A DNA stretch of 54,481 bases, taken from NCBI GenBank assembly GCA_903908555.1, contig CAIVSG010000137.1, positions 1 to 54,481 of the forward strand, given 5' to 3'. Numbering within the stretch: the first letter of the stretch is position 1; the number at the start of each line of letters is the position of its first letter. Below, one piece after another: positions 323-13,502 of this stretch. The notes below the pieces were generated by a model. The model was not told the origin of the DNA and searched no databases. It saw only the letters and a program-made list of their open reading frames with translations. This stretch comes from an uncultured Chlorobiaceae bacterium. Its GTDB lineage: Bacteria > Bacteroidota > Chlorobiia > Chlorobiales > Chlorobiaceae. The position numbers and the translations under genes were made by a program.

Positions 323-604
323 TCAAATGGCACATGTAACCAGGTTAAGTGGCAGACATGCTGGATCGTGGGTATAAGAATTCACTGGAAAGAAATCTTT
401 ATACGCGCCTCCCGCCGCCTTATCAAGTTCGTCATCGCTTAGCTCTCCAGCTAACTCTTTAATCTCCACCTCGCTGCAGTCAAACCCCTCGTTTTTAATG
501 AGAACAAAGCGCTCCGCAACATCTTCGATAGCCATTATGCGATTGCGAAATGCCTCGTCCGATTTCATCTTCTCGATGAATGCTCTTGCCTGGTCTAATG
601 ACAT
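323..604 (-). CDS. Nif11-type RiPP precursor peptide 1 (93 aa)
   Basis: This is a Nif11-like leader peptide gene. The start was set at the ATG at 604, where the shared leader MSLDQARAFIEKMKSDEAF begins; an upstream in-frame ATG lacks homology to the other copies. The leader (about 66 residues) contains the helical AIEDVAERF segment, the FDCSE segment, and ends in the double-glycine site KAAGG. The predicted core after GG is 27 residues, the longest in this window, with two Cys plus Ser, Thr and Pro residues suitable for modification. It lies between the metallopeptidase-like gene and the cyclodehydratase-like gene, so it is the best candidate substrate of that enzyme. A promoter-like element is at 668-697. 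The product and its activity are unknown. Confidence 0.9.
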   Translation of the reverse strand: MSLDQARAFIEKMKSDEAFRNRIMAIEDVAERFVLIKNEGFDCSEVEIKELAGELSDDELDKAAGGAYKDFFPVNSYTHDPACLPLNLVTCAI

Positions 605-667
605 GACTATCTCCTTGGCTTGGGGGTTAAAAAATGAACCTTGATAAGAAATGAATATATCGTTCGT

Positions 668-697
668 AAGATACCCGGCTATGTGTTGAACTTGCAA
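668..697 (-). promoter_or_regulatory. Candidate sigma-70-like promoter of precursor 1
   Basis: On the minus strand TTGCAA (692-697) and TATCTT (668-673) are 18 bases apart, 64 bases upstream of the precursor ATG. The same TTGCAAGTTCAACA block recurs upstream of precursors 2 and 4 at a comparable distance. That conservation is the main evidence; transcription is not shown. Confidence 0.5.
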
Positions 698-735
698 AAT
701 GTCGATTGCACACTGGGTTATCCCGCATAACCAGC

Positions 736-1908
736 TCAATCGGAATGGGATAGTGGTTGTTCTTTCACTGAAAACTTTTGCAGAGCATCAGGACGGGAAA
801 GCTCATCAAGCGTCATCAGAGAGAGTTGAAGCAAGAACCGCATTCTACTCCAACCATCATCACCTGACACACCATCCAATCGATAGATCTTTTCGAGATT
901 TGCCGCAGCATCCGCCACAATGCGGGTGAGAATCAGAAACGCGCCATCGGAAAGAGGCGGATTACCTCTGTAATTTTCCATCCGTCCGCCGGAGGGATAT
1001 TCAGGAGAAGGTGCAATCCCCATAAATGTCAGGAACCTCGCTCCGCTGTATTCGCCAAATGCTGCCATAAGACCCATATAATCAGCAAGTAACTCATCAA
1101 AAAGGTTGTTCTGCATTGAACCCAGTAACCTCAGAGTCATATAATGGGTGCACTCATGCTCCAGACGGATAATCAGTGATTTCTCCTGCCACTCCATTTC
1201 AGTTAGCCCCATGGCTGAAGCGTTCACGCCACTATAGGGGCCGTCGCTCAAAACGATCAGACGGTCACGATAGCGTTCATGATGTTCCTTGAAATCGATA
1301 AACTCCAGATTCCAGTCGCATTCAGGATGCTGCTCAAGCCACCTGGTTTTATAACGGTTAATTCTGTCCCAGTTGTTGTATCCCTTAATCATACAAGCCC
1401 CCATGGAATCGGGTACCACTTTAGGTTCATTCCGGTACGACAAAGCCTGTACGACACACACAAAATCGCTCCGATCAGGAATAACAAGCACGGGAATCCG
1501 GCCTGCTGCCGTCGGGTGCAGAAAGAGTTCTATCCGGTCAGGCTGATGAAGTATATTTCCGGTAGCAGTCTCAAAGCCCTTTGCATCCTCACCTTTGAGT
1601 GTGACAGCACGATATGCTTCGGTTTGACTGATCCCATCATTGACAGGAAATGAGAGCTGAACAAGCTTTTGCTGAAGCATTTGGTATACCCCCCCATATT
1701 CTGCTTCGCGAATATATCCATCCCAGACTGCCGCAAATGGTTCATCTACAAGAGGCAACTCAATACTTGGAGGCAACAGAGAATGATCGAACCTGTTTGC
1801 AGTATAGCGAAGCAATTCCTCCACTTCTGGCTCGTTTGCTCCGAGTTCAAGGAGATAGTGTTCTCTTTGTGTCTGCTCGTCCATGGGATGCAATTCTATA
1901 TAAGGCAC
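736..1908 (-). CDS. HExxH metallopeptidase-like protein of the RiPP locus (390 aa)
   Basis: I do not recognise a named family. Residues 251-255 read HECTH, a HExxH zinc-binding pattern in a hydrophobic helix (SLIIRLEHECTHYMTLRLLG), followed 17 residues later by Glu272 in FDELLADYMGL, which could supply the third ligand as in gluzincin-type proteases. There is no signal peptide, so it probably acts in the cytoplasm. It is codirectional with the precursors on either side (2095-2358 upstream, 323-604 downstream), which suggests a role in peptide maturation or immunity. The start is GTG at 1908 after a GAGAG stretch; an ATG at 1884 is an alternative. A decayed copy of its 5' end lies at 2696-2782. 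Protease activity is inferred from the motif only. Confidence 0.75.
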   Translation of the reverse strand: MPYIELHPMDEQTQREHYLLELGANEPEVEELLRYTANRFDHSLLPPSIELPLVDEPFAAVWDGYIREAEYGGVYQMLQQKLVQLSFPVNDGISQTEAYRAVTLKGEDAKGFETATGNILHQPDRIELFLHPTAAGRIPVLVIPDRSDFVCVVQALSYRNEPKVVPDSMGACMIKGYNNWDRINRYKTRWLEQHPECDWNLEFIDFKEHHERYRDRLIVLSDGPYSGVNASAMGLTEMEWQEKSLIIRLEHECTHYMTLRLLGSMQNNLFDELLADYMGLMAAFGEYSGARFLTFMGIAPSPEYPSGGRMENYRGNPPLSDGAFLILTRIVADAAANLEKIYRLDGVSGDDGWSRMRFLLQLSLMTLDELSRPDALQKFSVKEQPLSHSD

Positions 1909-2094
1909 CTCTCAGAGGTAAAATTTCGATAATCAATTTATTTAATGCATCCTATTTGAATAAAAAGAGATGCCCTATAGTCACCAGAGACACCTGCCGC
2001 CTTGCGGTTTATGACCACTCCGGCATCGTAAAGGCTTAACGTGGAAAAAAAACTTCTTGCATGAGGTGTCTCCTGGCTGGTTTTGGCAGATTTT

Positions 2095-2358
2095 TTAAGA
2101 ACAAAACATAGTCTGATACTGCCCTTTACTAGTATAGACTAAGCTAATAGTAGCTCCTCCCCCTCCAGCAGCCGAATCGAGCTCCGCATCGGATAACTCG
2201 CTTTGTACCTCTTTCACCTCGGTTTCGGTAAACTGAAATCCTGCGCTGCTGGCCGCAGCAAGCCGGGCATCAACATCTTCAATTGCCAAAATGCGATCTC
2301 TGAACGCTTCGTCCGACTTCATTTTCTCGACGAACGCCCTTGCTTGATCTAATGACAT
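2095..2358 (-). CDS. Nif11-type RiPP precursor peptide 2 (87 aa)
   Basis: Starts MSLDQARAFVEKMKSDEAF at an ATG preceded by a purine-rich GGGAGAACTCC stretch. The leader belongs to a second subtype shared only with precursor 6: it has DARLAAASSAGFQFTE and VKEVQSELSD in place of the FDCSE type, so it lacks the leader cysteine. The leader ends SAAGGGG, so the cut could fall after either glycine pair. The core is 17-19 residues, rich in Ser/Thr/Tyr/Gln with a single Cys next to the last residue. It has its own promoter (2421-2449) and an operator-like palindrome (2395-2415). The 3' flank contains the conserved cassette element (about 2003-2070). Confidence 0.9.
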   Translation of the reverse strand: MSLDQARAFVEKMKSDEAFRDRILAIEDVDARLAAASSAGFQFTETEVKEVQSELSDAELDSAAGGGGATISLVYTSKGQYQTMFCS

Positions 2359-2394
2359 GGAGTTCTCCCTATATTTGGTTTAAGAAACGAACGT

Positions 2395-2415
2395 TTATAC
2401 ACTTGAAGTGTATAA
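2395..2415. promoter_or_regulatory. Operator-like 21-bp palindrome at precursor 2 promoter
   Basis: TTATACACTT-G-AAGTGTATAA is a perfect palindrome (10-bp arms, one central base). It lies just downstream of the predicted -10 element at 2421-2426, across the likely transcription start of precursor 2. That position fits a repressor site. It is not found in the other precursor upstream regions. Confidence 0.45.
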
Positions 2416-2420
2416 CTTGA

Positions 2421-2449
2421 AATTTACGTACTATTTGTTGAACTTGCAA
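2421..2449 (-). promoter_or_regulatory. Candidate promoter of precursor 2
   Basis: On the minus strand TTGCAA (2444-2449) and TAAATT (2421-2426) are 17 bases apart. The element matches the upstream blocks of precursors 1 and 4. Confidence 0.5.
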
Positions 2450-2463
2450 AATGCGAAAAAGGT

Positions 2464-2612
2464 GGCGTCACAAAATACTGGATCTCTGTTCAGAAATACC
2501 TTCACTTCACCTTGGCCACGGTTCGAACATGACGCCAAGGCGTTTTATGCCCTCTCATGCGATGTAAAGTCGTAATGTGGAAAAACAACTTTTTTCAAGA
2601 GGTGTCTCGCTG
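2464..2612. repeat. Repeated cassette spacer, copy A
   Basis: GGCGTCA (2464-2470) and TGACGCC (2530-2536) are inverted arms with 59 bases between them. The same arms with the same 59-base gap occur at 3914-3986, and the sequence between them is recognisably similar. At 2557-2612 follows a block (TTTACATCGCATGAGAGGGC when read on the minus strand) related to the 3' flanks of precursors 2 and 6. The arrangement indicates that whole gene-plus-spacer cassettes were duplicated and that a precursor gene has been lost here. Confidence 0.55.
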
Positions 2613-2695
2613 GTGCGGGCATATTCTTCATCACCCGATCAGTACCTTCTGCTATCAACCACATAAATACTCACGCAATTAGCCATACCTTCTGT

Positions 2696-2782
2696 CAAAA
2701 GAGAGTTATCGAACCTGTTTGCATTATAGCGAAGCAACTCCTCTGCTTCACGATCGTTGGCTCCGAGTTCAAGGAGATAGTG
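2696..2782 (-). pseudogene. Remnant of a second metallopeptidase-like gene (5' part)
   Basis: Twenty-nine codons on the minus strand read HYLLELGANDREAEELLR and on to FDNSLL. They are nearly identical to residues 17-45 of the intact metallopeptidase-like protein at 736-1908 (HYLLELGANEPEVEELLR...). There is no start codon in place and the rest of the gene is absent. It is a decayed duplicate. Confidence 0.8.
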
Positions 2783-2862
2783 TTTTATTGTTTATTGAAA
2801 ATAGGTAACTTATAAGCGCTTATTTCCCAGCATTAGCCAAACCCCTATCCAAGGAGATTATC

Positions 2863-3102
2863 ATGTCACTTGATCAAGCAAGAGCGTTCGTCGAGAAAAT
2901 GAAGTCTGACGTTGCTTTTAAAGAGCGCGTTTTGGCAATTGAAGATGTTGACGCTCGTCTGTCGTGCATCCAGAGCGAAGGGTTTGACTGCAGCGAATCA
3001 GAGATTAAAGAGGTTGCAGGAGAGTTGAACGATGAGGAGTTGGATTTGGCGGTTGGGGGCGTGGTAAAACATATATTTTGGGGTATGTCCTATCAGTGTT
3101 GA
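2863..3102 (+). CDS. Nif11-type RiPP precursor peptide 3 (79 aa)
   Basis: This is the only precursor of the left cluster on the plus strand. The ATG at 2863 has a clear AAGGAG (2851-2856). The leader MSLDQARAFVEKMKSDVAF resembles that of precursor 7 (SDVAFKERV), the other plus-strand copy. It carries FDCSE and ends DLAVGG; the usual AAGG is changed to AVGG. The core is only 13 residues, hydrophobic and aromatic, ending in Cys. The stop codon overlaps the first base pairs of the very stable stem-loop at 3101-3158, its probable terminator. Confidence 0.9.
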   Translation: MSLDQARAFVEKMKSDVAFKERVLAIEDVDARLSCIQSEGFDCSESEIKEVAGELNDEELDLAVGGVVKHIFWGMSYQC

Positions 3103-3158
3103 GAGACGCCACCTTCGGTTAACCCCGGAAGAGGGGTTGACCGAAGGTGGCGTCTCTC
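3101..3158. terminator. Stem-loop with 26-bp arms between convergent precursors 3 and 4
   Basis: Arms 3101-3126 and 3133-3158 are complementary over 26 positions with one G-T pair and a six-base loop GGAAGA. It lies between the stop of precursor 3 (plus) and the stop of precursor 4 (minus), so it could end both transcripts. There is no clear T-run on either side, so it could instead protect mRNA 3' ends. Its inner part (ACCGAAGGTG) recurs at about 3561-3571. Confidence 0.6.
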
Positions 3159-3173
3159 ACGCGCAACAACAAA

Positions 3174-3419
3174 CTAACAAAAAATAAACCACATAAAATC
3201 ACCGGCATTCCTATCAATCCCTCCGCCCGCAGCGGCATCAAGTTCCTCGTCGCTCACAACACCAGAAATCTCCTTAATCTCCTCTTCGCTGCAGTCGAAC
3301 CCTTCGCTTTTAATGCTATTAAAGCGCTCTGCAACATCTTCGATAGCCATAACACGATTACGAAATTCCTCATCTGATTTCATCTTTTCTATGAACGCTC
3401 TGGCCTGGTCTAATGACAT
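3174..3419 (-). CDS. Nif11-type RiPP precursor peptide 4 (81 aa)
   Basis: The start was chosen at the ATG at 3419 (MSLDQARAFIEKMKSDEEF), in line with the other copies; an upstream in-frame ATG exists. The leader has AIEDVAERF, the FDCSE segment and ends DAAAGG. The 15-residue core is hydrophobic, with Trp and Phe, and ends in its only Cys, so it offers little for heterocyclisation; ring formation with a terminal Cys is conceivable but unproven. A promoter-like element is at 3479-3507. Confidence 0.9.
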   Translation of the reverse strand: MSLDQARAFIEKMKSDEEFRNRVMAIEDVAERFNSIKSEGFDCSEEEIKEISGVVSDEELDAAAGGGIDRNAGDFMWFIFC

Positions 3420-3478
3420 GAAGTTCTCTGATTGGGGGTGAAGAAGTGGACTTTGATACACATGAATTTATCGCTCGT

Positions 3479-3507
3479 AAGTTAGATGCTATTTGTTGAA
3501 CTCGCAA
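3479..3507 (-). promoter_or_regulatory. Candidate promoter of precursor 4
   Basis: On the minus strand TTGCGA (3502-3507) and TAACTT (3479-3484) are 17 bases apart, followed by the conserved ACGAGCGATAAATTCATG stretch also seen before precursor 6. Confidence 0.5.
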
Positions 3508-3579
3508 AATGTGACAAAGGCGGCTTCACCAAATACTTGGTTTATGTCCGGAAACATCTGACCGAAGGTGTGGATTCTT

Positions 3580-3831
3580 TCAGCAGGCTTGAAAATGTCG
3601 CCCACAAAAAGAATTAAAAAAATAGCAATTCAAGCCTCCCGCCGCCTCATCCAGCTCCTCGGTGCTTAGCTCTCCTGCTACCTCTTTAATCTCCTCTTCG
3701 CTGCAGTCGAACCCTTCGCTTTTAATGATATTAAATCGTTCTGCAACATCTTCGATAGCCATAACCCGATTGCGAAATGTCTCGTCCGACTTCATCTTCT
3801 CGATGAACGTTCTTGCTTGATCTAATGACAT
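3580..3831 (-). CDS. Nif11-type RiPP precursor peptide 5 (83 aa)
   Basis: Start at the ATG at 3831 (MSLDQARTFIEKMKSDETF). The leader carries FDCSE and ends DEAAGG. The 17-residue core has three Cys (positions 3, 10 and 17), the most in the set, plus aromatic residues and one Ser, so it is the best candidate here for multiple thioether or disulfide links. The upstream region keeps the TTAACCCCCAATCCAAAGAG leader sequence but lacks the TTGCAA promoter block. It may depend on read-through from precursor 6. Confidence 0.9.
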   Translation of the reverse strand: MSLDQARTFIEKMKSDETFRNRVMAIEDVAERFNIIKSEGFDCSEEEIKEVAGELSTEELDEAAGGLNCYFFNSFCGRHFQAC

Positions 3832-3913
3832 AGAGTTCTCTTTGGATTGGGGGTTAAGAAAAAAAATACAGTCTGCACGGAAAGCTGGAGGGTCTATAGA
3901 ATAATCAGCATGC

Positions 3914-4060
3914 GGCGTCACTAAATATTAAGTCTCTGTTCTGAAGCATCTGCACATCACCAGCGCCAAGGTTCGCACCTGACGCCGAGGCGATGCATGA
4001 TCACTCTGACATCTACAGGCTTAAAGTGGAAAAGAGAGCTCATGACAGAGGTGAGCCACC
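3914..4060. repeat. Repeated cassette spacer, copy B
   Basis: GGCGTCA (3914-3920) and TGACGCC (3980-3986) arms with the same 59-base gap as copy A, followed by a block at 3985-4060 related to the 3' flanks at 2003-2070 and 2557-2612. It links the 3' end of precursor 6 to the 5' leader of precursor 5. Confidence 0.55.
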
Positions 4061-4061
4061 C

Positions 4062-4313
4062 CTAATGAAAACCTCTCGGAATATTTATAATTCCACCATA
4101 CGCCTCACAGATGTAGCCGCCGGCTGCCGCGTCAAGCTCATCGTCCGATAACTCGCTTTGTACCTCTTTCACCTCTGCATCGGTAAACTGAAATCCTGCG
4201 TCGCTGGCTGCAGCAAGCCGGGTATCAAAATCTTCCATTGCTAAAATGCGATTCCTGAATGCCTCATCTGATTTCATCTTTTCGATGAACGCTCTTGCTT
4301 GATCGAATGACAT
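4062..4313 (-). CDS. Nif11-type RiPP precursor peptide 6 (83 aa)
   Basis: Starts MSFDQARAFIEKMKSDEAF at 4313. The leader is of the second subtype (DTRLAAASDAGFQFTD, VKEVQSELSD), like precursor 2, and ends DAAAGG. The 17-residue core has one Cys at position 3, a Gly pair, two Ile-rich stretches and ends in Arg-Gly-Phe-His. It is the most upstream minus-strand precursor; its promoter block (4376-4403) is degenerate. Confidence 0.9.
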   Translation of the reverse strand: MSFDQARAFIEKMKSDEAFRNRILAMEDFDTRLAAASDAGFQFTDAEVKEVQSELSDDELDAAAGGYICEAYGGIINIPRGFH

Positions 4314-4375
4314 GGAGTTCTCTTTGGATTGGGGGTTAAGAAATGAACCTTGATAAACATCAATTTATCGCTCGT

Positions 4376-4403
4376 AAGTTACGAGTTATCTGCTGAACAC
4401 AAA
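4376..4403 (-). promoter_or_regulatory. Degenerate promoter block of precursor 6
   Basis: On the minus strand TTTGTG (4398-4403) and TAACTT (4376-4381) are 16 bases apart, aligned with the promoter block of precursor 4 but missing one or two bases in the -35 part. Confidence 0.35.
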
Positions 4404-4775
4404 AAAATACTGGCTGTACGCTGGTTTGGACGGTAAAGCTGTAGTAGTCTGGTAAAAATGTGTCTAATGAACGGGGTTAACCGATTGTTCGAAAATAGGT
4501 TATTTGATGCACCTCCATTTATTGCCGAGATAAAAGATGGAAGGGAAAAACTTAACACCTTCCGAAGGTTATCTCTTCACGTACCACTCCCAACCATACA
4601 TAGGGGGAACCAACGGACATAGTGATGAATTCCGTCCTGATTTAACGGTAATTACGCAATAGCATCGAACGATGCACTATGTCAGTTTTTGAATTATATT
4701 GTTCTCCAGTTGTAATGAAGCAGATTTAGTTTTGTATTTTCCCCATAAACCCCAAAACTTTCAAGGAGTCTGATT
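4404..4775. other. Divergent intergenic region before the export operon
   Basis: No gene is seen in this 370-base stretch between precursor 6 (minus) and the adaptor gene (plus). It holds inverted arms GACATAGTG (4616-4624) and CACTATGTC (4675-4683), an inner palindrome GCATCGAACGATGC (4662-4675), and an ACCTTCCGAAGGT palindrome near 4556-4568. These could be regulatory sites for the operon; no promoter stands out. Confidence 0.35.
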
Positions 4776-5897
4776 TTGGCTCTTGAGTTCAGAAAAGAAG
4801 CGCTTAAAAAGCTCAGCTCTCCGGATGACCTTGACCGGTTGATGCCGGTCACCGATGCGCGCGGCTGGATTGCCTTGTTTGCAGGAGGGATCCTGCTTCT
4901 GGCAGTTATTATTTGGGGCTTTTTTGGAAAAATACCCGTCACGATCCCGGGTGACGGAATTACCATGGTGACGGGTTCCATCGATGCTATTTATATACGG
5001 ACAAATGGTGTCCTACGGCGTTTTCACCTGAAGGGCGGTGATGTGGTTCAAAAGGGTGAGTTGCTTGGTGTTATCGAGCAACCGGAATTGCATCAGGCGG
5101 TTGAGAATGCGCGTTCTGAGCGTTCATTTATTCAACAGCATCATAACGAACGAGAGGCTTTTCTTCAAAAGACAGTTCTGTCGCTAAGCGAAAGGGTTGA
5201 GCGACTTAACGCTTTATTCAAGGAGGGGCTTGTTGAAAAGGCTCTTGTCACCAGCGCCGGCCAGGATTTGATGAATGCAAAAAACGAGCTTTACAGTACT
5301 ACTGAAAAAAAAGCTGCTGCTGACCGTAACTATAGTGCTCTTCAGTATAATTATCAGTGGCAGACTGATCTTGTAGCTCCTTATACAGGAAAAGTTGCAG
5401 AAGTTCATTATAACAACGGCGATTTTGTTACAACAAGTAAATATCTGCTGCTTCTGGAGCAACTTGAGCCAAATGGGAAGTCTTCTGAGGGACTGTTCTT
5501 CTACATGTATGTTTCAGCAGAAAATGCAAAGAATGCAAAGAGAGGAATGAAGGTGTATGTATCTCCTTCAACAGTTGTCCCTGAAGAGCACGGACATATT
5601 ATTGGTGATGTGATTGCTGTAAGTGATTATCCTGCAACTGCAGAGTCGATTGAAAATGATATCAATGAATCAATTGCCCGAAAATATTCATCAGGTCCTC
5701 CCGTTTACAAGGTTATTGTCAAGCTTCGACGTGATCCATTATCGTATAGCGGATACAGTTGGACTTCAGGAAAAGGCCCTCATGTAACGATTACCTCCGG
5801 CACCCTTTGTACAGGACGGATTACTGTTGAGGAACAGCGCCCTGTTGATCTTGTCATTCCTGTTTTCAAAAAATATGTACTTGGTGAGGCCCGCTGA
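4776..5897 (+). CDS. HlyD-type adaptor of the NHLP bacteriocin export system (373 aa)
   Basis: The start is a TTG at 4776, supported by AAGGAG at 4763-4768. The protein has a short cytoplasmic N-terminus, one membrane segment (about residues 32-52) and a periplasmic part. That part has a split lipoyl/biotinyl-like domain (GGDVVQKGELLGVIE and LVAPYTGKVAEVHYNNGD) flanking a helical hairpin, as in membrane-fusion proteins. In this family it bridges the inner-membrane ABC transporter and the outer-membrane channel. It is the first gene of a tightly packed operon (one base to the next start). Subfamily assignment to NHLP (Nif11/nitrile-hydratase leader peptide) export comes from the neighbours. 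Confidence 0.85.
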   Translation: MALEFRKEALKKLSSPDDLDRLMPVTDARGWIALFAGGILLLAVIIWGFFGKIPVTIPGDGITMVTGSIDAIYIRTNGVLRRFHLKGGDVVQKGELLGVIEQPELHQAVENARSERSFIQQHHNEREAFLQKTVLSLSERVERLNALFKEGLVEKALVTSAGQDLMNAKNELYSTTEKKAAADRNYSALQYNYQWQTDLVAPYTGKVAEVHYNNGDFVTTSKYLLLLEQLEPNGKSSEGLFFYMYVSAENAKNAKRGMKVYVSPSTVVPEEHGHIIGDVIAVSDYPATAESIENDINESIARKYSSGPPVYKVIVKLRRDPLSYSGYSWTSGKGPHVTITSGTLCTGRITVEEQRPVDLVIPVFKKYVLGEAR

Positions 5898-5898
5898 C

Positions 5899-7458
5899 AT
5901 GCCCGCCCCGTATGGTCAGACTCGACCAATATCACACCATGAGTCTCGCTGGAAAGGGAAACTGCTGCTTGTGGTTGGCATGTCCATCATGTTCTTGTTG
6001 CCGGTTTCTTTATTTGCATCGGTTTCTCTGCTTGACATGGTGAGAACAGCTCTTGACCGTTCACCGGGGCTTCTGCTGGAGAGACAGAGTTTGCGAAGTT
6101 CAGAGAGCAACATGCTTGCGGCTCGATCGGCATTTGATTCACAACTATCACTCTCTTCGAGCTACAGCCAAGCGGACTCTACGGCATCAGGCATTGAACT
6201 TAAAACGGTTGCATCGAAATTATCTTCAAGCACTCTTCTTCCTTTTGGCTTGATTATTGCACCTGCTATATCTGTTCAGGGATATACATCACCTGGATTT
6301 TCTACCCTCAATACTGCTTCAGCAGGTGTTTCATTTACGTTACCTCTTTTGCAAGGTCTTGGTAACAACTCCTACAATATGGCGTTGAAGGCATCACGAA
6401 AGAGTTATCAGGCGGAAGGTTTTGCGTTGCAGCATATAGCTTCAACGAGCATTTATTCTGCTGCCAGTGCTTACTGGAATTACGTTTATGCCTACCAGAC
6501 CTTGAAGCGTGACCAACAACTCACTTATAATGCAAAAGAGAGTTGCCGGGCCACAAAAGCTCTTGCTGGAGCCGGAGAGGTTGCCTCTGTCAGGGTGGTT
6601 CAGGCTGAGGCTTATTTGCAGCAATTAGAAGCTACTGAGATCGGCGATGCCCAAGGGCTTCGACAGGCGTGGAGTGATTTATTTGCTACTGTTGGTTGTT
6701 CTACAAAAGGAAGGGAAGAACCGGAAGAGCCTTTAGACTCATTTCCAGTTCCTGATAGAAATTTAATATTGCCTGGTGATCTCTCAAAACTTAAAGCCAA
6801 AGCACTTTCCAGCCGTGCTGATCTGCAGGCGCTTCGTCTGCAGAGCGATGCGGCAAATGACCTCCTGGCAGGCAGCCGTAACGGCCTGAAGCCTAAAATT
6901 GATCTTTTGCTGTATGCTGGATACAATGGCATGCATAACGGTTCATTGATTACTGATTATTTCAGCTCTCTCTTCAGTCAGGTTCCAGGTGTCAATGCGT
7001 CAGCCACACTCTCTTATACGTTCTCCTATGGAAACCATAGTAACAAGTCTACTTTTATCCGTAACAGTGCTCAGTATGAAACTGCAATAATCAACAGAGA
7101 GGTACTTGAACGCAGCATTGACGAAGGGGTGGGTGTTGCTACAGAATCTGTTAAAAATATCTCAGCAATATTGTTGCTTAGTATGAAAAGTGCAGAGACA
7201 TACCGCTTCCTCAATGCAGCTGAACTCAAGAAATTCAAAGAGGGAATGTCAGACCTTTTCAAAGTGCAGAGTGTCAGCACTGATTTGGGCAATGCTGAAA
7301 AGCAGCTTCTTGCAGCCCAAAAAGCCTATGCATTGGCAGTGCTCACCTATCGCTATCAAATTGCAGAAATCATGCATGAGCACAATGGTCTCTATAGCGT
7401 TGAAGAGCGTGACCTGGTCAGTATTCCAGCACTTGATAATACCATCAATAAGCAATGA
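5899..7458 (+). CDS. TolC-family outer-membrane channel (519 aa)
   Basis: The start chosen is the ATG at 5899, one base after the adaptor stop, although the frame is open from 5827. Residues about 18-42 form a signal-like segment (KGKLLLVVGMSIMFLLPVSL). The rest shows two similar helical repeats with QAEAYLQQLEA and a second LGNAEKQLLAAQKAYALAVL segment, typical of outer-membrane efflux proteins. It should form the exit duct for the exported peptides. Its stop overlaps the next start as ATGA. Confidence 0.8.
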   Translation: MPAPYGQTRPISHHESRWKGKLLLVVGMSIMFLLPVSLFASVSLLDMVRTALDRSPGLLLERQSLRSSESNMLAARSAFDSQLSLSSSYSQADSTASGIELKTVASKLSSSTLLPFGLIIAPAISVQGYTSPGFSTLNTASAGVSFTLPLLQGLGNNSYNMALKASRKSYQAEGFALQHIASTSIYSAASAYWNYVYAYQTLKRDQQLTYNAKESCRATKALAGAGEVASVRVVQAEAYLQQLEATEIGDAQGLRQAWSDLFATVGCSTKGREEPEEPLDSFPVPDRNLILPGDLSKLKAKALSSRADLQALRLQSDAANDLLAGSRNGLKPKIDLLLYAGYNGMHNGSLITDYFSSLFSQVPGVNASATLSYTFSYGNHSNKSTFIRNSAQYETAIINREVLERSIDEGVGVATESVKNISAILLLSMKSAETYRFLNAAELKKFKEGMSDLFKVQSVSTDLGNAEKQLLAAQKAYALAVLTYRYQIAEIMHEHNGLYSVEERDLVSIPALDNTINKQ

Positions 7459-9644
7459 GATCGCAAGCTGAAAAACTGCCATGGAAAGAGGTGAGGGTAA
7501 AAACCCCGACGGTGCTGCAGATGGAAGCAGTGGAGTGCGGAGCAGCTTCGCTTGCTATGATTTTAGCTTATTACGGCAGGTTTGAACCTCTTGAAAAGCT
7601 TCGCGAGGCATGTGGGGTTTCGCGTGATGGCAGCAAGGCGAGCAATCTGATTAAAGCGGCACGTACCTACGGATTTGAGGCAAAAGGCTTTCAGATTGAG
7701 CCTGAGGGGATTAATGGGAAGCGTCTGCCAATGATCCTCTTCTGGAACCTTTATCACTTTGTGGTGCTGGAGGGATATAAAAACGGCATGTATTATATCA
7801 ATGATCCTGGTTCCGGCCCTCGAAAGGTGACCGCAGAGGAGTTTAGTGATTCATTTTCCGGTGTGGCGCTGACTTTTTTACCTACTGCTGACTTTAAAAA
7901 AGGAGGGAAGCCCTTCAGTCTTTTTGATGGACTAAAAAAGCGGTTGCCAGGCCTTGAGACAGCACTGGTTTATATTGTACTGGTCAGTCTGTTATTGGTG
8001 ATACCCGGTCTTGTAGTGCCTTCGTTTCTACGAATATTTATTGATTACGTTCTCGTTAAGGGAATGAGCGGCTGGCTGCAGCCTCTGCTTATCGGCATGC
8101 TGCTGACAGCGCTTTTGCAGGCTGGCCTTACCGGGCTGCAACGCCAATGTCTCCTTAAGGCTGAAACAAAACTCGCCCTGACCTCATCAGCCAGGTTTTT
8201 CAACCATGTTTTTGCGTTACCGATCAGGTTTTTCACCATGCGCCAGGCTGGGGAGATTTCCAACCGTGTACAGCTGAACGATAAGGTGGCTACCATTGTG
8301 GCCGGTGATTTGTCGTCAAACACGCTCAATATCCTGTTGATATGCTTTTATGCTTTATTGATGTTCCGTTACGATGTGCTTCTGACCTTTGTGGCAATTT
8401 TTATCGCTGCTCTTAACGGTATAGCTCTCTCTTATGTATCGAGCAGGCGTATTGTGTTGAACCAGAAGTTTCAGCAGGATAACGGCAAGCTGCTTGGCAC
8501 CACTTTTTACGGGATCAAGACGATTGAAAGCATCAAGGCTACCGGGTCGGAGCAAGACTTCTTTTCGCGTTGGTCCGGGCTTTTTGCCAACATGGTTGCG
8601 GGCCGCCAGACGCTTGAGGTGTCGACGGTTTTCCTGCTTGCTATTCCGCCTTTTCTGCAGACAGCTGGCAATATTGCGATTTTGTCGGTGGGGGGAATGA
8701 GGGTGATGGAGGGAGAACTGACCATGGGTATGCTGGTTGCCTTCCAGAGTCTTTTACTCTCTTTTCTTGCGCCGGTTAACCAGATGGTGACGCTTGGCCA
8801 AAAATTGCAGGAAGCGGAGGGGGATATGCAGCGCCTTGATGATGTGATGAATAATGAAGCATCTCTTGGCGGTGATGACAATGAAAGCCTTTCCGATGCC
8901 GCTGAGAATGGTTACACAGAGAAACTTTCCGGTTTTGTTGAGCTGAAGAACGTAACATTTGGTTACAACGTCCTTGAGCCTCCCCTGATCACTGACTTTT
9001 CGCTTAAGCTTGTTCCCGGTGCAAGGGTGGCATTGGTGGGTGGTTCTGGGTCAGGTAAATCGACCATTGCAAAACTTGTGGCTGGTCTTTATGATCCATG
9101 GAGTGGTGAGGTTCTTTTTGACGGTAAATCGCGGAGTGAGATTCCTCGAAGGTTGCTGGTCAACTCGATTGGAATGGTTGACCAGGAGATCACGCTTTTT
9201 GAGGGCACTATTGCTGAAAATATTGCCATGTGGGACAGCACCCTGCCTCAGGAGGAGATTGCCCGGGCAGCCGAAGATGCTGCCATCAACGCGGTAATTA
9301 ATGCGAGAACAGGAGGGTATCAGGGGGTGCTTGGTGAAGGGGGCAATAACTTTAGCGGCGGGCAGAGACAGAGGATGGAGATTGCCCGTGCTCTTGCCAC
9401 TGATCCTTCTATTCTTATTCTTGATGAAGCGACCAGCGCGCTTGATCCGGCGACGGAAATGGTTATCGATGGAAATATTCGACGCAGAGGATGCACCTCA
9501 CTTATTGTAGCGCACCGTCTCAGTACCATTCGGGACTGTGATGAAATTATTGTGCTTGAATATGGGCAGGTCAAAGAGCGGGGAACACACAGTGTACTGA
9601 TGGCCAAAGAGGGCGTTTATGCCGGCCTGATCAAAACAGGATAG
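7455..9644 (+). CDS. NHLP peptidase-containing ABC transporter (C39 peptidase, 729 aa)
   Basis: Cuts the leader after GG and exports the core peptide. Domains in order: C39 papain-like peptidase (residues about 15-150) with Cys28 in MEAVECGAASLAM, His101 in NLYHFVVLEG and Asp117 in INDPGSG; a six-helix ABC membrane domain (about 165-460); an ATPase domain with Walker A GGSGSGKST, signature FSGGQRQRMEIARAL, Walker B ILILDEATSALD and switch AHRLST. All key residues are present. It overlaps the TolC-type gene by four bases. The family is the NHLM/NHLP ABC transporter 1, matched to the GG-ending Nif11 leaders in this window. Confidence 0.92.
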   Translation: MRSQAEKLPWKEVRVKTPTVLQMEAVECGAASLAMILAYYGRFEPLEKLREACGVSRDGSKASNLIKAARTYGFEAKGFQIEPEGINGKRLPMILFWNLYHFVVLEGYKNGMYYINDPGSGPRKVTAEEFSDSFSGVALTFLPTADFKKGGKPFSLFDGLKKRLPGLETALVYIVLVSLLLVIPGLVVPSFLRIFIDYVLVKGMSGWLQPLLIGMLLTALLQAGLTGLQRQCLLKAETKLALTSSARFFNHVFALPIRFFTMRQAGEISNRVQLNDKVATIVAGDLSSNTLNILLICFYALLMFRYDVLLTFVAIFIAALNGIALSYVSSRRIVLNQKFQQDNGKLLGTTFYGIKTIESIKATGSEQDFFSRWSGLFANMVAGRQTLEVSTVFLLAIPPFLQTAGNIAILSVGGMRVMEGELTMGMLVAFQSLLLSFLAPVNQMVTLGQKLQEAEGDMQRLDDVMNNEASLGGDDNESLSDAAENGYTEKLSGFVELKNVTFGYNVLEPPLITDFSLKLVPGARVALVGGSGSGKSTIAKLVAGLYDPWSGEVLFDGKSRSEIPRRLLVNSIGMVDQEITLFEGTIAENIAMWDSTLPQEEIARAAEDAAINAVINARTGGYQGVLGEGGNNFSGGQRQRMEIARALATDPSILILDEATSALDPATEMVIDGNIRRRGCTSLIVAHRLSTIRDCDEIIVLEYGQVKERGTHSVLMAKEGVYAGLIKTG

Positions 9645-9669
9645 TCAAAACCCTATATTTCCCTACATC

Positions 9670-11895
9670 ATGGATAGAGGCAAAGCAGAGGCGGGAAATG
9701 AACGGTCTTATGCTGCAAAAGCGGCAATCAAAGCCGGTGCACAGCAGAAGGAGTACCGCACGGCGCTTGGCCGTATCGCATCCTTGATGCATGGTAATGA
9801 TAATGCAGCTAAAGAGAGTATTTTAGATCCTGACCCCTTGTTTGCAGCATGCGCTCTTGTTGGGAAAGCGGCTGGAATCACTTTTCGGAAACCCTATGAG
9901 ACAGTTGATGGATCTCATGAAGATACCCTGCAGTTGCTTTGTCATTTTTCGGGTATCCGGGCACGAAGTGTGACGCTCCGGCATGCTGATCAGTGGTGGG
10001 CAAAGGATAACGGCCCGATGCTTTGTTACAGTGTGGACGGGAATAGGCCGTTTGCCCTTCTTCCTGGCAGAGCTTCCGGATACCTGCTTGTTGATCCTTT
10101 GACCTCTGACAGGGTTGAGCTCACCTCTGCAGTTGCTGAGGGGCTGGCACAGCAGGCATGGATGTTTTACCGTCCATTCCCGGAAAAGCCTATGCATGGA
10201 AAAGAGTTGCTCCGGTTTGGCATGTTCGGGTGCCGCGGGGATGTGATACGGATGCTTCTGCTTGGCACTGCCAGCTCTCTGCTTGGTCTTTTGACCCCAG
10301 TTCTGACCGGTATGCTTTTTGGCACGGTTATTCCGAAGTCGGATCGCAGCCAGCTTTTGCAGCTAACCTTAATTCTTGTGGCTAGTGTGATCTCTGTATC
10401 GGGATTTGACCTGGCAAGACAGATTGCTGCAATGAGGATGCAGACGCGTATTGATATGTTGATTCAGCCGGGGTTGATCGATCGGCTTTTGAATCTTCCA
10501 AGCAACTTTTTCCGTACCTACTCTTCGGGCGATCTGGCGGTAAGGGTCATGGGCGCGACGCAGATCCGAGAGATTCTCAGCAGTTCAGCGGTCAGCGTTG
10601 TGCTTGGTATGATGTTCAGTGTCTTTTCGCTCGGTCTTCTTTTTTATTACAGCTGGAAGCTTGCGCTTGTGGCCCTTTTGTTGACGGTGATCATGCTTGC
10701 CGGAACGGTCTTTATATCTCTCCGCCAGTTGACCTTTAATCGTGATGCTCTTACTGTGCAAGGCAGGATATCGGGGCTGCTTGGCAACCTGCTTGGTGGT
10801 ATAACCAAGATCCGGGTGACTGGCACAGAAAAAGTTGCATTTTCAAAATGGGCAGATCTTTTTACTCGTGAACGGGGTCTCATGTTTGAGGCTGGTAAAT
10901 TGCAGAATACGCTGGCCGTGGTTACGACCTCGTTTCCTGTGGCGGCGCTGGCGCTGATCATTTTTTCTGCAGGAAATTTTTTACAGGGCGAGAGACTCAG
11001 TGCTGGCTCTTTTATAGCCTTTACATCAGCCTATACGGGATTTCAGACTACACTTTTACAGATGGTGATGACTGTTATTGCAAGCCTTAATGTAGTGCCG
11101 CTTTATGAACGGTTGAAGCCGGTGCTTGAGATGGTGCCAGAGGCCGATGAGTCTAATAAATACCCCGGCAAACTTTCGGGCGGCATCTCGGTCCACAACC
11201 TGAACTTCAGTTACAGTAGTGACAGCCCTCAGATTCTCTACGATATTAATTTTTCTGCCGCACCTGGCGAGTTTATCGCTCTTGTCGGGGGCTCTGGCTC
11301 GGGGAAGTCAACCTTGCTAAGGCTTTTTCTCGGGTTCGAAAAGCCTGATTCCGGAACTGTTTTCTATGATGGAGAGGATCTGGCCTCTCTGAATGTGCAG
11401 GCAGTGCGTCGCCAGATCGGGGTGGTGATGCAGAATGGCCAATTGCAGCCGGGTTTTATTTTGCAGAATATTATCGGTTCATCCACTCTGACGGTGGATG
11501 ATGCCTGGGAGGCGGCTGCAATGGCCGGGTTTGATGAGGATATTCGCAACATGCCGATGGGCATGCATACCGTCATCAGTGAAGGGGGGGGGACACTTTC
11601 CGGAGGGCAGAAGCAGCGGTTGATTATTGCTGGTTCTCTCGTTCGTAAACCTGGTATTATCTTCTTTGACGAGGCTACCAGCGCGCTCGATAACCGCACG
11701 CAGGAGGTGGTCAGCAGCAGTCTTGAGAAGCTTAAGGCCACCCGTATTGTGATTGCTCACCGACTCAGTACCATCCGTCATGCTGACCGTATTTACTGTC
11801 TTGATAACGGGCGTATTGTACAGTCCGGCAGTTACGCAGAGTTAATGGCTCAGGAGGGCTTTTTTAAGGAGCTTGCCAGTAGGCAGATAGCATAG
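9670..11895 (+). CDS. NHLP second ABC transporter, ATP-binding protein (741 aa)
   Basis: This is the usual partner of the peptidase transporter. Residues about 1-175 form an N-terminal domain. It looks like a degenerate C39-type fold, with a GPMLCYSVDGNRPFALLPG stretch and YLLVDP where the peptidase has its His and Asp segments, but without a catalytic Cys-Gly context. Then come the ABC membrane domain and an ATPase with GGSGSGKST, LSGGQKQRLIIAGSL, IIFFDEATSALD and AHRLST. Twenty-five bases separate it from the first transporter. The two ATPases may work as a heterodimer. The start at 9670 has no strong ribosome-binding site. Confidence 0.88.
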   Translation: MDRGKAEAGNERSYAAKAAIKAGAQQKEYRTALGRIASLMHGNDNAAKESILDPDPLFAACALVGKAAGITFRKPYETVDGSHEDTLQLLCHFSGIRARSVTLRHADQWWAKDNGPMLCYSVDGNRPFALLPGRASGYLLVDPLTSDRVELTSAVAEGLAQQAWMFYRPFPEKPMHGKELLRFGMFGCRGDVIRMLLLGTASSLLGLLTPVLTGMLFGTVIPKSDRSQLLQLTLILVASVISVSGFDLARQIAAMRMQTRIDMLIQPGLIDRLLNLPSNFFRTYSSGDLAVRVMGATQIREILSSSAVSVVLGMMFSVFSLGLLFYYSWKLALVALLLTVIMLAGTVFISLRQLTFNRDALTVQGRISGLLGNLLGGITKIRVTGTEKVAFSKWADLFTRERGLMFEAGKLQNTLAVVTTSFPVAALALIIFSAGNFLQGERLSAGSFIAFTSAYTGFQTTLLQMVMTVIASLNVVPLYERLKPVLEMVPEADESNKYPGKLSGGISVHNLNFSYSSDSPQILYDINFSAAPGEFIALVGGSGSGKSTLLRLFLGFEKPDSGTVFYDGEDLASLNVQAVRRQIGVVMQNGQLQPGFILQNIIGSSTLTVDDAWEAAAMAGFDEDIRNMPMGMHTVISEGGGTLSGGQKQRLIIAGSLVRKPGIIFFDEATSALDNRTQEVVSSSLEKLKATRIVIAHRLSTIRHADRIYCLDNGRIVQSGSYAELMAQEGFFKELASRQIA

Positions 11896-11913
11896 ATTAC
11901 AAGATTTACCATT

Positions 11914-13053
11914 ATGTCATATTTCGGAGATATCTATGAACGTGCGATCCTGCCGGTGTCTCTCCAGCTTATATCGTTGGAGAGCAGGCGAAGGATAAGA
12001 ACTATCATTGATGTTTTGCCTAAAGAGTACGGGTTGATGACATTCGGGTTTGAGTGTCCGCTTCATGAGGCATCTGCAGATGCAGATTTCCTGGTTTCAT
12101 CCGATGTCACTAATGATGGTCCTTCCATTATGATGCATGCATCTGCTGCCGGTAGTGAGTTCCCTGACTCAGTATTTGAAAAGGTTCGTGAATTTGGTTC
12201 CTACTGGAAGGGGGTTTTGTCAAATAAGCAAAGTGACCCAGCGCCTTTGATTGATGATGTCTGGCTTGAATATGATTTGATAGCTCATCCAGAGAGTTTC
12301 CCCGTTCCAGGCATTTTTTTCAGGACCGCCAGTAATATCGAGAAAGATGGCGATGCCCTGCATCTGGACGTGATTGTTGATTTTTTATGCCGGACATATT
12401 TTGATGTGAAAAAAACTTATCCATCCACGCTGTTGCGGCGACAACTTGAAGCGTGTGTTGTATCTGAAGGTGATAATAAAAATGTAAAAAAAAGCATCTA
12501 TATCGGTATGATGCTGTCAAGAAAGTCATCAGGATTGCGACTGGTTGTTGGCTTTGCGTCATCTGAAGCGCTGTTGTCGTTTTTGAGGGATTCAGGTTGG
12601 CCTGGTCCATTAACTTTTATCAAGCCTTTTGTTGATGAGTGGTATCAAATGGTTGATATGGTCACTCTCAATGTGGATATTGGTGAAGATGGTTTGGGGA
12701 TTAAACTTGGTTTTGAGCTTTCTTTTAACTGCCGTCGTCCCCCTGAACGTGAGCCTCGCTGGGCTTTGCTTTTGGATTATCTGGTTGAAAAAGGGATGTG
12801 CTGTCCATCTAAAGTGCAGGGACTGATAACGTATGCCGGCTATGAGGAGTACCCCGGTATGCAGGGGATTATGGCTGAATCATCCGATATGGAACTTCTC
12901 AAAGATGCGTGCAGAATGTTTGTTGTGCGGAAACTTTTTCATATCAAGGTAGTCTATGATGGCACACCTTCGCTTTTTGCAAAGGGTTACCTTGGTGTGA
13001 CACCGTATTTTCGCAGGTGGGATATTTTTAAAGAGGCCACGTCACTACCTTGA
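11914..13053 (+). CDS. Unidentified protein at the end of the export operon (379 aa)
   Basis: I do not recognise this protein. It begins MSYFGDIYERAILPVSLQL, has no signal peptide or membrane segment, and is of mixed helix/strand composition. Notable stretches are DDVWLEYDLIAHPESFPVPG, AKGYLGVTPYFRRW near the C-terminus and several aromatic clusters. It starts 18 bases after the second ABC gene and is codirectional, so it belongs to the export operon and could be a maturation enzyme, an immunity protein or a chaperone for the precursors. No catalytic motif stands out. Codon use and length are consistent with a real, intact gene. Confidence 0.75.
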   Translation: MSYFGDIYERAILPVSLQLISLESRRRIRTIIDVLPKEYGLMTFGFECPLHEASADADFLVSSDVTNDGPSIMMHASAAGSEFPDSVFEKVREFGSYWKGVLSNKQSDPAPLIDDVWLEYDLIAHPESFPVPGIFFRTASNIEKDGDALHLDVIVDFLCRTYFDVKKTYPSTLLRRQLEACVVSEGDNKNVKKSIYIGMMLSRKSSGLRLVVGFASSEALLSFLRDSGWPGPLTFIKPFVDEWYQMVDMVTLNVDIGEDGLGIKLGFELSFNCRRPPEREPRWALLLDYLVEKGMCCPSKVQGLITYAGYEEYPGMQGIMAESSDMELLKDACRMFVVRKLFHIKVVYDGTPSLFAKGYLGVTPYFRRWDIFKEATSLP

Positions 13054-13216
13054 TGTAAAACTGGATCAACAAGAGTTGCCGCTAATCATAAAAATATGAC
13101 CGCTTAGCGCCATTGAGAATTAGCAGTGCTTCGAGAGCATCTTCTATGATGCTTTAAACGTATCGCTTCCGAGTGATAGGCTCATTTCTTAACCCAATCC
13201 AAGGAGGAATAATATT

Positions 13217-13450
13217 ATGTCACTTGATCAAGCAAGAGCGTTCATTGAGAAGATGAAGTCGGACGTTGCTTTTAAAGAGCGTGTTATGGCTATTGAAGAT
13301 GTTGCAGAGCGCTTTAAGCTCATTAAAAGTGACGGGTTTGATTGTAGCGAGGAGGAGATTAAAGAGGTAGCAGAAGAGCTAAGCGACGAGGAGCTGGATG
13401 AGGCCGCGGGGGGGCGATATTGCTTTGGGGATTGCATGCTTGTAGGGTGA
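13217..13450 (+). CDS. Nif11-type RiPP precursor peptide 7 (77 aa)
   Basis: The ATG at 13217 follows AAGGAGG. The leader MSLDQARAFIEKMKSDVAF carries AIEDVAERF, FDCSE and ends DEAAGG. The core is just 11 residues, with Cys at positions 3 and 7 and a C-terminal Leu-Val-Gly; it is the shortest of the set. It lies 163 bases downstream of the export operon on the same strand. The 5' leader (CATTTCTTAACCCAATCCAA) matches those of the minus-strand precursors, so it derives from the same cassette. A stem-loop follows at 13478-13502. Confidence 0.9.
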   Translation: MSLDQARAFIEKMKSDVAFKERVMAIEDVAERFKLIKSDGFDCSEEEIKEVAEELSDEELDEAAGGRYCFGDCMLVG

Positions 13451-13477
13451 CGTTTTTGCCAAGTTGCCTTTACGACA

Positions 13478-13502
13478 CCGGAGTGGTCATAAACCACTTC
13501 GG
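13478..13502 (+). terminator. Stem-loop downstream of precursor 7
   Basis: CCGGAGTGGT (13478-13487) and ACCACTTCGG (13493-13502) pair with one G-T and a five-base loop CATAA. The same sequence block, in gene sense, follows precursor 2 (about 2003-2036). There is no T-run, so a processing or stability role is as likely as termination. Confidence 0.4.

What the first reader, a model, noticed from the sequence alone, without database searches (positions are those of the whole stretch)
323..13450. Seven Nif11 precursors with conserved leaders and entirely different cores around one NHLP exporter
The sequence shows seven genes whose leaders (about 65 residues) are nearly identical up to GG, while the cores (11 to 27 residues) share no similarity and carry 1, 1, 1, 1, 2, 2 or 3 Cys. 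Four cores have Cys as the last or next-to-last residue. Two leader subtypes exist (FDCSE type in five, FQFT type in two). Such a pattern implies one maturation/export machine acting on a diversifying library. The products are undescribed as far as I can tell.
Basis: partly seen in the sequence, partly recalled or inferred. Interest (0 to 1): 0.85.

Follow-up and report, generated by a model that had tools for sequence, protein, structure and literature searches.

The report
Variable exported peptides with hidden prenyltransferase
A green sulfur bacterium carries a family of small exported-peptide genes whose front halves are alike and whose ends differ, next to an unrecognised enzyme that probably attaches a lipid tail to them; such peptide families are known, but the enzyme and the peptides' habit of ending in cysteine look new.

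Summary
In detail: seven Nif11-leader precursors surround one NHLP-type export operon, and their seven cores are mutually unrelated. Leaders are 59-86% identical, so 'nearly identical' overstates it.

Conserved leaders with hypervariable cores and one exporter were published in 2010, Chlorobium included. One window core (VVKHIFWGMSYQC) recurs in three other species and is there as conserved as its leader, or more so.

New here:
(1) The gene after the exporter (11914-13053), without Pfam, NCBIfam or PDB-sequence match, is predicted to fold as an ABBA prenyltransferase (best Z 17.6; all 50 rows shown are prenyltransferases). In 20 of 30 homologous loci it lies among RiPP genes.
(2) Its partner DUF7005, with an invariant HECTH motif, also accompanies NHLP exporters.
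(3) Of 57 precursors from the genus, 20 end exactly in Cys (4.4 expected).
(4) DNA flanking the cores, non-coding 3' side included, is more conserved than the cores; some 3' flanks are tails of broken reverse-transcriptase genes.
(5) TOMM and radical-SAM enzymes sit on another contig; no LanM in 65 genus genomes.

Products, prenyl donor and acceptor are unproven.

The parts
323..604 (-). Nif11 precursor 1, core AYKDFFPVNSYTHDPACLPLNLVTCAI
   Evidence: TIGR03798 above cut-off; translation
736..1908 (-). DUF7005 (PF22541), 390 aa, invariant HECTH motif; putative metalloenzyme
   Evidence: Pfam 460.9 bits; alignment A3
2008..2024 (-). 3' flank element copy, 70 nt behind the stop of precursor 2
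   Evidence: pattern search, distance
2095..2358 (-). Nif11 precursor 2, core GGATISLVYTSKGQYQTMFCS
2440..2529 (+). C-terminal remnant of a reverse-transcriptase gene
   Evidence: tblastn, 60% over 29 aa, E 8e-4
2863..3102 (+). Nif11 precursor 3, core VVKHIFWGMSYQC, conserved in three other species
3100..3159 (.). 27-nt inverted repeat between convergent precursors 3 and 4
   Evidence: motif matches 3110-3126 (+) and 3133-3149 (-)
3174..3419 (-). Nif11 precursor 4, core GIDRNAGDFMWFIFC
3580..3831 (-). Nif11 precursor 5, core LNCYFFNSFCGRHFQAC
3914..3979 (+). C-terminal remnant of a reverse-transcriptase gene, convergent with precursor 6
   Evidence: tblastn, 68% over 22 aa, E 0.01
4062..4313 (-). 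Nif11 precursor 6, core YICEAYGGIINIPRGFH
4776..5897 (+). NHLP secretion protein (HlyD type), TIGR03794
   Evidence: 270.7 bits, cut-off 156.2
5827..7458 (+). TolC-type outer membrane protein (true start probably further in)
   Evidence: PF02321, 95.5 bits
7455..9644 (+). NHLP ABC transporter with C39 peptidase, TIGR03796
   Evidence: 1067 bits, cut-off 853; PF03412
9670..11895 (+). NHLP ABC transporter without peptidase, TIGR03797
   Evidence: 926.6 bits, cut-off 709.4
11914..13053 (+). Gene X, 379 aa, predicted ABBA-fold peptide prenyltransferase
   Evidence: model pLDDT 84.7, pTM 0.87; Foldseek; VIA; RiPP-cluster homologs
13217..13450 (+). Nif11 precursor 7, core RYCFGDCMLVG
13477..13493 (+). 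3' flank element copy, 26 nt behind the stop of precursor 7
   Evidence: distance

Best explanation
This is a RiPP locus of a Chlorobiaceae bacterium. Seven precursors share a Nif11 leader, which is the address label for export and maturation. After modification, the C39 domain of the exporter cuts behind GG, and HlyD, TolC and the two ABC proteins release the core. At least eleven complete precursors on four contigs of this genome probably use this one exporter. Gene X, directly behind the exporter, is an ABBA-type prenyltransferase that most likely puts an isoprenoid on a Trp or Tyr side chain; each of the seven cores has at least one of these. DUF7005 is a second tailoring or processing metalloenzyme. 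Radical-SAM/SPASM and TOMM enzymes elsewhere in the genome may act on the same leaders in trans. Cores change by replacement between conserved flanks: promoter and leader on one side, terminator and an old reverse-transcriptase tail on the other. One core is held by selection, and a C-terminal Cys is kept in about a third of otherwise unrelated cores, probably because it is chemically used. Shown: genes, families, predicted fold, statistics. Inferred: prenylation, its target and donor, the use of the Cys, trans action, the manner of core change.
For: Leaders and exporter above curated cut-offs. X: AlphaFold2 pLDDT 84.7, pTM 0.87, successive strand-strand-helix-helix units; 11 Foldseek matches at E<=0.001, all prenyltransferases (best 7e-5); VIA best Z 17.6 over 298 residues and all 50 rows shown prenyltransferases. 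X homologs in genome contigs: 20 of 30 loci hold a RiPP hallmark gene by thresholds I set after seeing the data; all 4 plasmid records with X are RiPP clusters. DUF7005 and X are adjacent behind the exporter in G006 and adjacent in G080; all 3 of 65 genus genomes with X have DUF7005; all 4 plasmid records with DUF7005 hold the NHLP exporter. Cores: last residue Cys in 20 of 57, 4.4 expected, 0 of 20000 shuffles as high; 16 of 53 without the FWGMS cores, 4.05 expected. Cores richer in Cys (1.9x), Trp (2.2x), Tyr (1.8x) and Gly (1.75x) than translated flanks. Core replacement: flanks more alike than cores.
Against: No biochemistry and no product. X is in only 3 of 65 genus genomes, so it cannot explain the shared core features: 14 of the 20 C-terminal-Cys cores come from genomes without X, and Trp/Tyr is present in 27 of 31 cores of DUF7005 genomes and 21 of 26 of the others. 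Foldseek TM-scores are modest (about 0.4-0.5) and sequence identity is near 10%. 10 of 30 X loci showed no hallmark under my thresholds. The DUF7005 model has no significant fold match (0 at E<=0.001; best VIA Z 3.8). The trans enzymes are on other contigs of a binned assembly with 3.3% estimated contamination.
Confidence: 0.66

Rival explanations
1. The cores are not peptides in their own right: duplicated leaders simply run into whatever DNA follows, so the tails are random read-through.
For: Cores do not align with each other (0 of 147 within-genome pairs), vary from a few to over 40 residues, and fragments of leaders occur on C197 and C205 of this genome.
Against: Cys is last in 20 of 57, 4.4 expected; Cys, Trp, Tyr and Gly enriched and Pro, Arg, Ala depleted against translated flanks; one core conserved in four species.
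Confidence: 0.07
2. The main maturation is azole formation: the YcaO/SagB set on contig C113 acts in trans on Cys, Ser and Thr of all cores, with X and DUF7005 as minor tailoring enzymes or unrelated to these precursors.
For: C113 carries TIGR03604, TIGR03882 and SagB matches above cut-off, a methyltransferase and a Nif11 precursor; the same pairing is published for C. luteolum (PMC2887384, passages).
Against: YcaO is found in only 4 of 65 genus genomes, while C-terminal-Cys cores occur in ten of thirteen, most of them without YcaO. X stands next to the exporter; YcaO does not.
Confidence: 0.2
3. X and DUF7005 are not modifiers but immunity, regulation or leader-handling proteins; the ABBA fold of X would then be a binding scaffold.
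For: Sequence identity to solved prenyltransferases is about 10%; in Pseudanabaena X is the N-terminal part of a protein annotated as a 2OG-Fe(II) oxygenase, which a recognition domain would also explain.
Against: X-family sequences keep strand residues of the kind that hold diphosphate in this fold (R203, R209, K264, H343, K345, Y348, K357, Y359; the comparison is recalled), and an ABBA enzyme acting on a Nif11-leader precursor is published (MppC, PMC12715784).
Confidence: 0.15

Closest known systems
Nif11-derived precursors (N11P) and NHLP export system of Haft, Basu and Mitchell 2010 (PMC2887384; passages seen)
   Same: Same leader family TIGR03798, same exporter families, paralogous expansion and core hypervariability; Chlorobium luteolum and C. 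phaeobacteroides are named.
   Different: They tie Nif11 precursors to azole or lanthionine enzymes. The passages seen mention no ABBA enzyme, no DUF7005, no C-terminal-Cys rule and no conserved 3' flank; I did not read the whole paper.
Prochlorosins (Nif11-type lanthipeptides of picocyanobacteria, one promiscuous ProcM; PMC10783134, abstract start in the listings; the rest recalled)
   Same: Works like it: conserved leader, unrelated cores, few enzymes for many substrates.
   Different: No LanM match in any of 65 genus genomes; different phylum; C39 exporter of NHLP type with a prenyltransferase gene.
MppC, leader-dependent lanthipeptide prenyltransferase of Moorena (PMC12715784; parts 1 and 2 of 3 read)
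   Same: ABBA-type prenyltransferase acting on a Nif11-leader precursor; geranylates a core Trp; needs the whole leader.
   Different: MppC follows a LanM ring; no LanM here. Its sequence was not at hand, so whether X belongs to the same family is untested.
Cyanobactin prenyltransferases (PatF, PagF, LimF)
   Same: Same fold: PatF, LimF and PagF chains are among the Foldseek matches of X.
   Different: They act on free macrocycles without leader (PMC12715784); no NCBIfam or Pfam family assigned any of 30 X relatives convincingly.

Membership tests
Nif11-like leader RiPP precursors (TIGR03798) | Leader matches the model above its cut-off and ends in GG | tested here: met
   7 of 7 window genes above cut-off; GG in all
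NHLP export system | TIGR03794, TIGR03796 and TIGR03797 together | tested here: met
   All three above cut-off
Class II lanthipeptides / prochlorosins | LanM synthetase encoded in the genome | tested here: not met
   0 of 65 genus genomes match TIGR03897 at E<=0.001, own genome included; own assembly about 81% complete
TOMM (azole) peptides | YcaO cyclodehydratase and SagB dehydrogenase beside the precursor | tested here: inconclusive
   Absent from the window; present on C113 of the same assembly beside another Nif11 precursor
ABBA prenyltransferases (gene X) | Barrel of repeated beta-beta-alpha-alpha units | tested here: met
   Predicted model only:
ABBA prenyltransferases (gene X) | Prenyl transfer activity and diphosphate pocket | not testable with these tools
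   Conserved Arg, Lys, Tyr and His on strands are suggestive only
MppC-type leader-dependent prenyltransferases | Sequence relationship to MppC | not tested
   MppC sequence not at hand
HEXXH metalloenzymes (DUF7005) | Invariant HExxH with further conserved acid residue | tested here: met
   H251-E252-C253-T254-H255 and E272 invariant in 9 of 9 sequences
HEXXH metalloenzymes (DUF7005) | Known metallopeptidase or alpha-ketoglutarate HEXXH fold or family | tested here: inconclusive
   0 NCBIfam families at E<=0.001; 0 Foldseek matches at E<=0.001; best VIA row a neutral metalloprotease at Z 3.8
Diversity-generating retroelement | Variable repeats that align with each other, as copies of one template do | tested here: not met
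   Cores do not align: 0 of 147 within-genome pairs
Diversity-generating retroelement | Intact reverse transcriptase of the DGR kind | tested here: inconclusive
   The convergent copies beside precursors that I read are fragments of 278 aa or less; best PADLOC model RT_UG4

The most novel reading that the evidence does not exclude
Green sulfur bacteria run a combinatorial peptide family with its own chemistry: core cassettes are exchanged between a conserved promoter-leader block and a conserved 3' block (terminator plus reverse-transcriptase tail), a shared enzyme still to be found uses the C-terminal Cys as anchor of a ring or a lipid, and in some lineages an ABBA prenyltransferase of an undescribed family and the metalloenzyme DUF7005 act on the same leaders.
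Probability: 0.3. Interest if true: 0.82.

Novelty: new variant of a known kind. Interest (0 to 1): 0.57.

Why it matters
If X is a leader-guided prenyltransferase that accepts several unrelated cores, it offers leader-tagged lipidation of many peptides, which the published MppC does with one core only (PMC12715784). It also gives a first functional context to a protein family without a name and to DUF7005, for which a full-text search of the held library found no paper. The C-terminal-Cys rule across unrelated cores points to an unrecognised maturation step and is directly testable by mass spectrometry. The cassette-like flanks make the open question of how leader-conserved, core-variable families arise testable by comparing closely related strains.

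Tried and rejected
Random read-through as origin of the cores: rejected by terminal Cys and composition. Diversity-generating retroelement: cores do not align and the reverse-transcriptase copies seen are fragments. Group II intron: no Rfam match at gathering thresholds in nine loci or in the window; the TIGR04416 score (91.4 bits) is far below its cut-off of 300. Conserved RNA structure of the 3' element: only 5 weak pairs in the alignment of 17. Antisense frame over the 3' element as a gene: found in 11 places, but the frame is not conserved beyond the element, and two window pieces have no Pfam match. A sequence-level assignment of X: 0 PDB-sequence matches at E<=10, only stray Pfam and NCBIfam matches, one member each, E>=0.066; no relative in viral contigs by the pattern scan. 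Absence from the VIA or Foldseek rows of any one family for DUF7005 proves nothing. X as the cause of Trp/Tyr-rich cores: not supported, since genomes without X are similar. X as partner of the terminal Cys: not supported for the same reason.

Limits of the counts: the library has 112 rows; I kept 57 and dropped 55 (32 without a full leader or core, 22 with leader E>=1e-20, 1 cut by a contig end). The leader HMM was built from the seven window leaders, so it favours their kind. The 3' pattern was chosen after looking at precursor flanks. Search of genomes was limited to the genus, and radical-SAM enzymes were not searched genome-wide.
Full report
What was checked. The window is a whole contig (C137) of a 2.8-Mb, 286-contig assembly that is about 81% complete. 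Two close relatives in the same genus, G080 and G006, have contigs of the same length and match as records named 'uncultured Chlorobiaceae bacterium', so the host is a green sulfur bacterium. All seven pass the TIGR03798 cut-off. The exporter is complete.

Other precursors in the genome. TIGR03798 finds 18 places at E<=0.001 in this genome. Besides the window's seven, four more complete precursors of the same leader type lie on C14 (two), C113 and C221. One further precursor of the nitrile-hydratase leader type lies on C197 (TIGR03793, 103 bits, cut-off 50.9). Only the window holds a TIGR03797 place above cut-off, so this exporter probably serves all of them.

Gene X. The 379-aa gene 18 nt behind the exporter has no Pfam or NCBIfam family. 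tblastn found four plasmid records, in Nostoc, Azospirillum, Pseudanabaena and Acaryochloris, 24-29% identical. All four lie among Nif11 or NHLP precursors and LanM or radical-SAM genes. A profile scan of genome contigs gave 30 loci. With thresholds set after seeing the scores, 20 of 30 hold at least one of LanM, TOMM protein, NHLP or Nif11 precursor, NHLP exporter, DUF7005 or radical-SAM methyltransferase; 10 hold LanM, 8 DUF7005, 9 the exporter; 10 show none. The model of X (30 sequences, pLDDT 84.7, pTM 0.87) shows repeated strand-strand-helix-helix units. Foldseek's 11 matches at E<=0.001 are all prenyltransferases. VIA gives Z 17.6 at 4.1 A over 298 residues for MpnD, and all 50 entries shown are prenyltransferases or dimethylallyltryptophan synthases. 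That these enzymes are called ABBA enzymes is recalled. No PDB chain is found by sequence. In Pseudanabaena the X part is the N-terminal portion of a protein annotated as a 2OG-Fe(II) oxygenase.

DUF7005. The gene at 736-1908 matches PF22541 at 460.9 bits. It is in 5 of 65 genus genomes, X in 3 of 65, and the three with X all have DUF7005. In G006 the order is exporter, DUF7005, X with gaps of 9 and 4 nt; in G080 a GNAT-type protein, DUF7005 and X follow each other. In the window X is behind the exporter and DUF7005 lies apart among the precursors. All four plasmid records with DUF7005 also hold the NHLP exporter. HECTH and a later Glu are invariant in nine sequences. The predicted structure has no significant relative. 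HEXXH enzymes in RiPP pathways include oxygenases as well as peptidases (PMC12636437, passages), so its reaction stays open.

Cores across the genus. From 112 candidate rows I kept 57 with a full leader of the window's kind, in 13 genomes. Cys is the last residue in 20 of 57, against 4.4 expected from shuffling residues within each core, and no shuffle of 20000 reached 20; position -1 has Cys in 35%, positions -2 to -5 in 2-5%. Without the FWGMS cores it is 16 of 53 against 4.05. Leaving out this genome, it is 17 of 46 (counted). The codons and stops at these ends vary, so this is not one copied DNA end. Trp or Tyr occurs in 48 of 57 cores, and Cys, Trp, Tyr and Gly are enriched over translated flanks. 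The pattern is therefore selected, not random read-through. X cannot be its cause, because 14 of the 20 come from genomes where X was not found.

Core change and its exception. In cross-genome comparison of equal 54-nt pieces (1231 pairs), cores exceed the shuffle threshold in 0.6%, 3' flanks in 6.0 and 10.6%, 5' flanks in 13.6 and 8.0%, leaders in 95.4 and 49.7%. Non-coding flanks are thus more conserved than the coding core. The exception is the FWGMS core, found in four species with 7 to 12 of 13 residues shared; in G000/G021 and G016/G050 the core is better conserved than the leader, in the other four pairs the two are about equal or the core is a little lower.

The 3' flank. A 17-nt piece of it, searched in six whole genomes with one mismatch, has 19 places; 13 lie 26-112 nt behind a precursor of my list on the same strand, one more behind the C197 nitrile-hydratase-type precursor, and five are unassigned; the reversed control pattern has none. 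One genome of the six, G043, has no copy. Beyond it, 11 of 57 precursors have the tail of a reverse-transcriptase gene within 400 nt downstream in convergent orientation, ten of them at 83-144 nt; upstream divergent 5, upstream same strand 2, downstream same strand 1. The best PADLOC model is RT_UG4. The copies read are 278 aa or shorter. The simplest account is one ancestral precursor next to a reverse-transcriptase gene, copied many times while the latter decayed. A part of the enzyme in core exchange is possible but unsupported.

Maturation in trans. C113 of the same assembly carries a radical SAM/SPASM protein (PF04055; TIGR04463 240.7 bits, below its cut-off of 525), a Nif11 precursor, SagB, a methyltransferase and a YcaO fusion. 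Relatives of the radical SAM gene, fragments included, lie in fetched loci of six genomes, full-length ones 9-231 nt from a precursor in four places and farther away in three. YcaO is in 4 of 65 genomes, LanM in none.

Known and new. The general pattern is published (PMC2887384). In the held library, 'nif11' with 'chlorobium' gives that paper alone, 'chlorobium' with 'lanthipeptide' none, 'DUF7005' none, and of 17 papers for prenyltransferase, lanthipeptide, prenylation and Nif11 I read only PMC12715784, parts 1 and 2 of 3. Its MppC is the nearest worked example. I therefore file the find as a new variant of a known kind.

Noticed in passing
L166 7185-8021, L056 320-907, L130 5203-5565, L131 13313-13786 and others: Fragments of a UG4-like reverse transcriptase lie convergent and close behind Nif11 precursors in several Chlorobiaceae genomes.
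   Followed up: partly
L076 1703-3499 and neighbours of X in other loci: A ~600-aa protein without Pfam family is found with X in 10 of 30 loci, mostly directly behind it; X may work with it in cyanobacteria. It was not noted in the window.
   Followed up: partly
L148, L153, L154, L155, L158, L159, L160, L161: A second Chlorobiaceae leader type (SIDQAKAFL) carries Cys-rich cores such as CCGHTCEN... and CGTTCGTEC... that are conserved between species, unlike the window's cores.
   Followed up: no
L046 419-700 (-): A nitrile-hydratase-type leader precursor (TIGR03793) in the same genome with the same 3' flank element as the Nif11 precursors.
   Followed up: partly
L130 6290-7330, L165 418-1458, L046 1935-2951: A GNAT-type protein stands before DUF7005 in G080 and G006; a relative is on C197 of this genome.
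   Followed up: partly
L043 7617-8060: A broken piece of the radical SAM/SPASM gene lies convergent beside a precursor on C14.
   Followed up: no
L046 1-312 and 2964-3188, L048 2986-3150: Cut or truncated leaders without a core in this genome, so the family also decays; the first is at a contig end.
   Followed up: no
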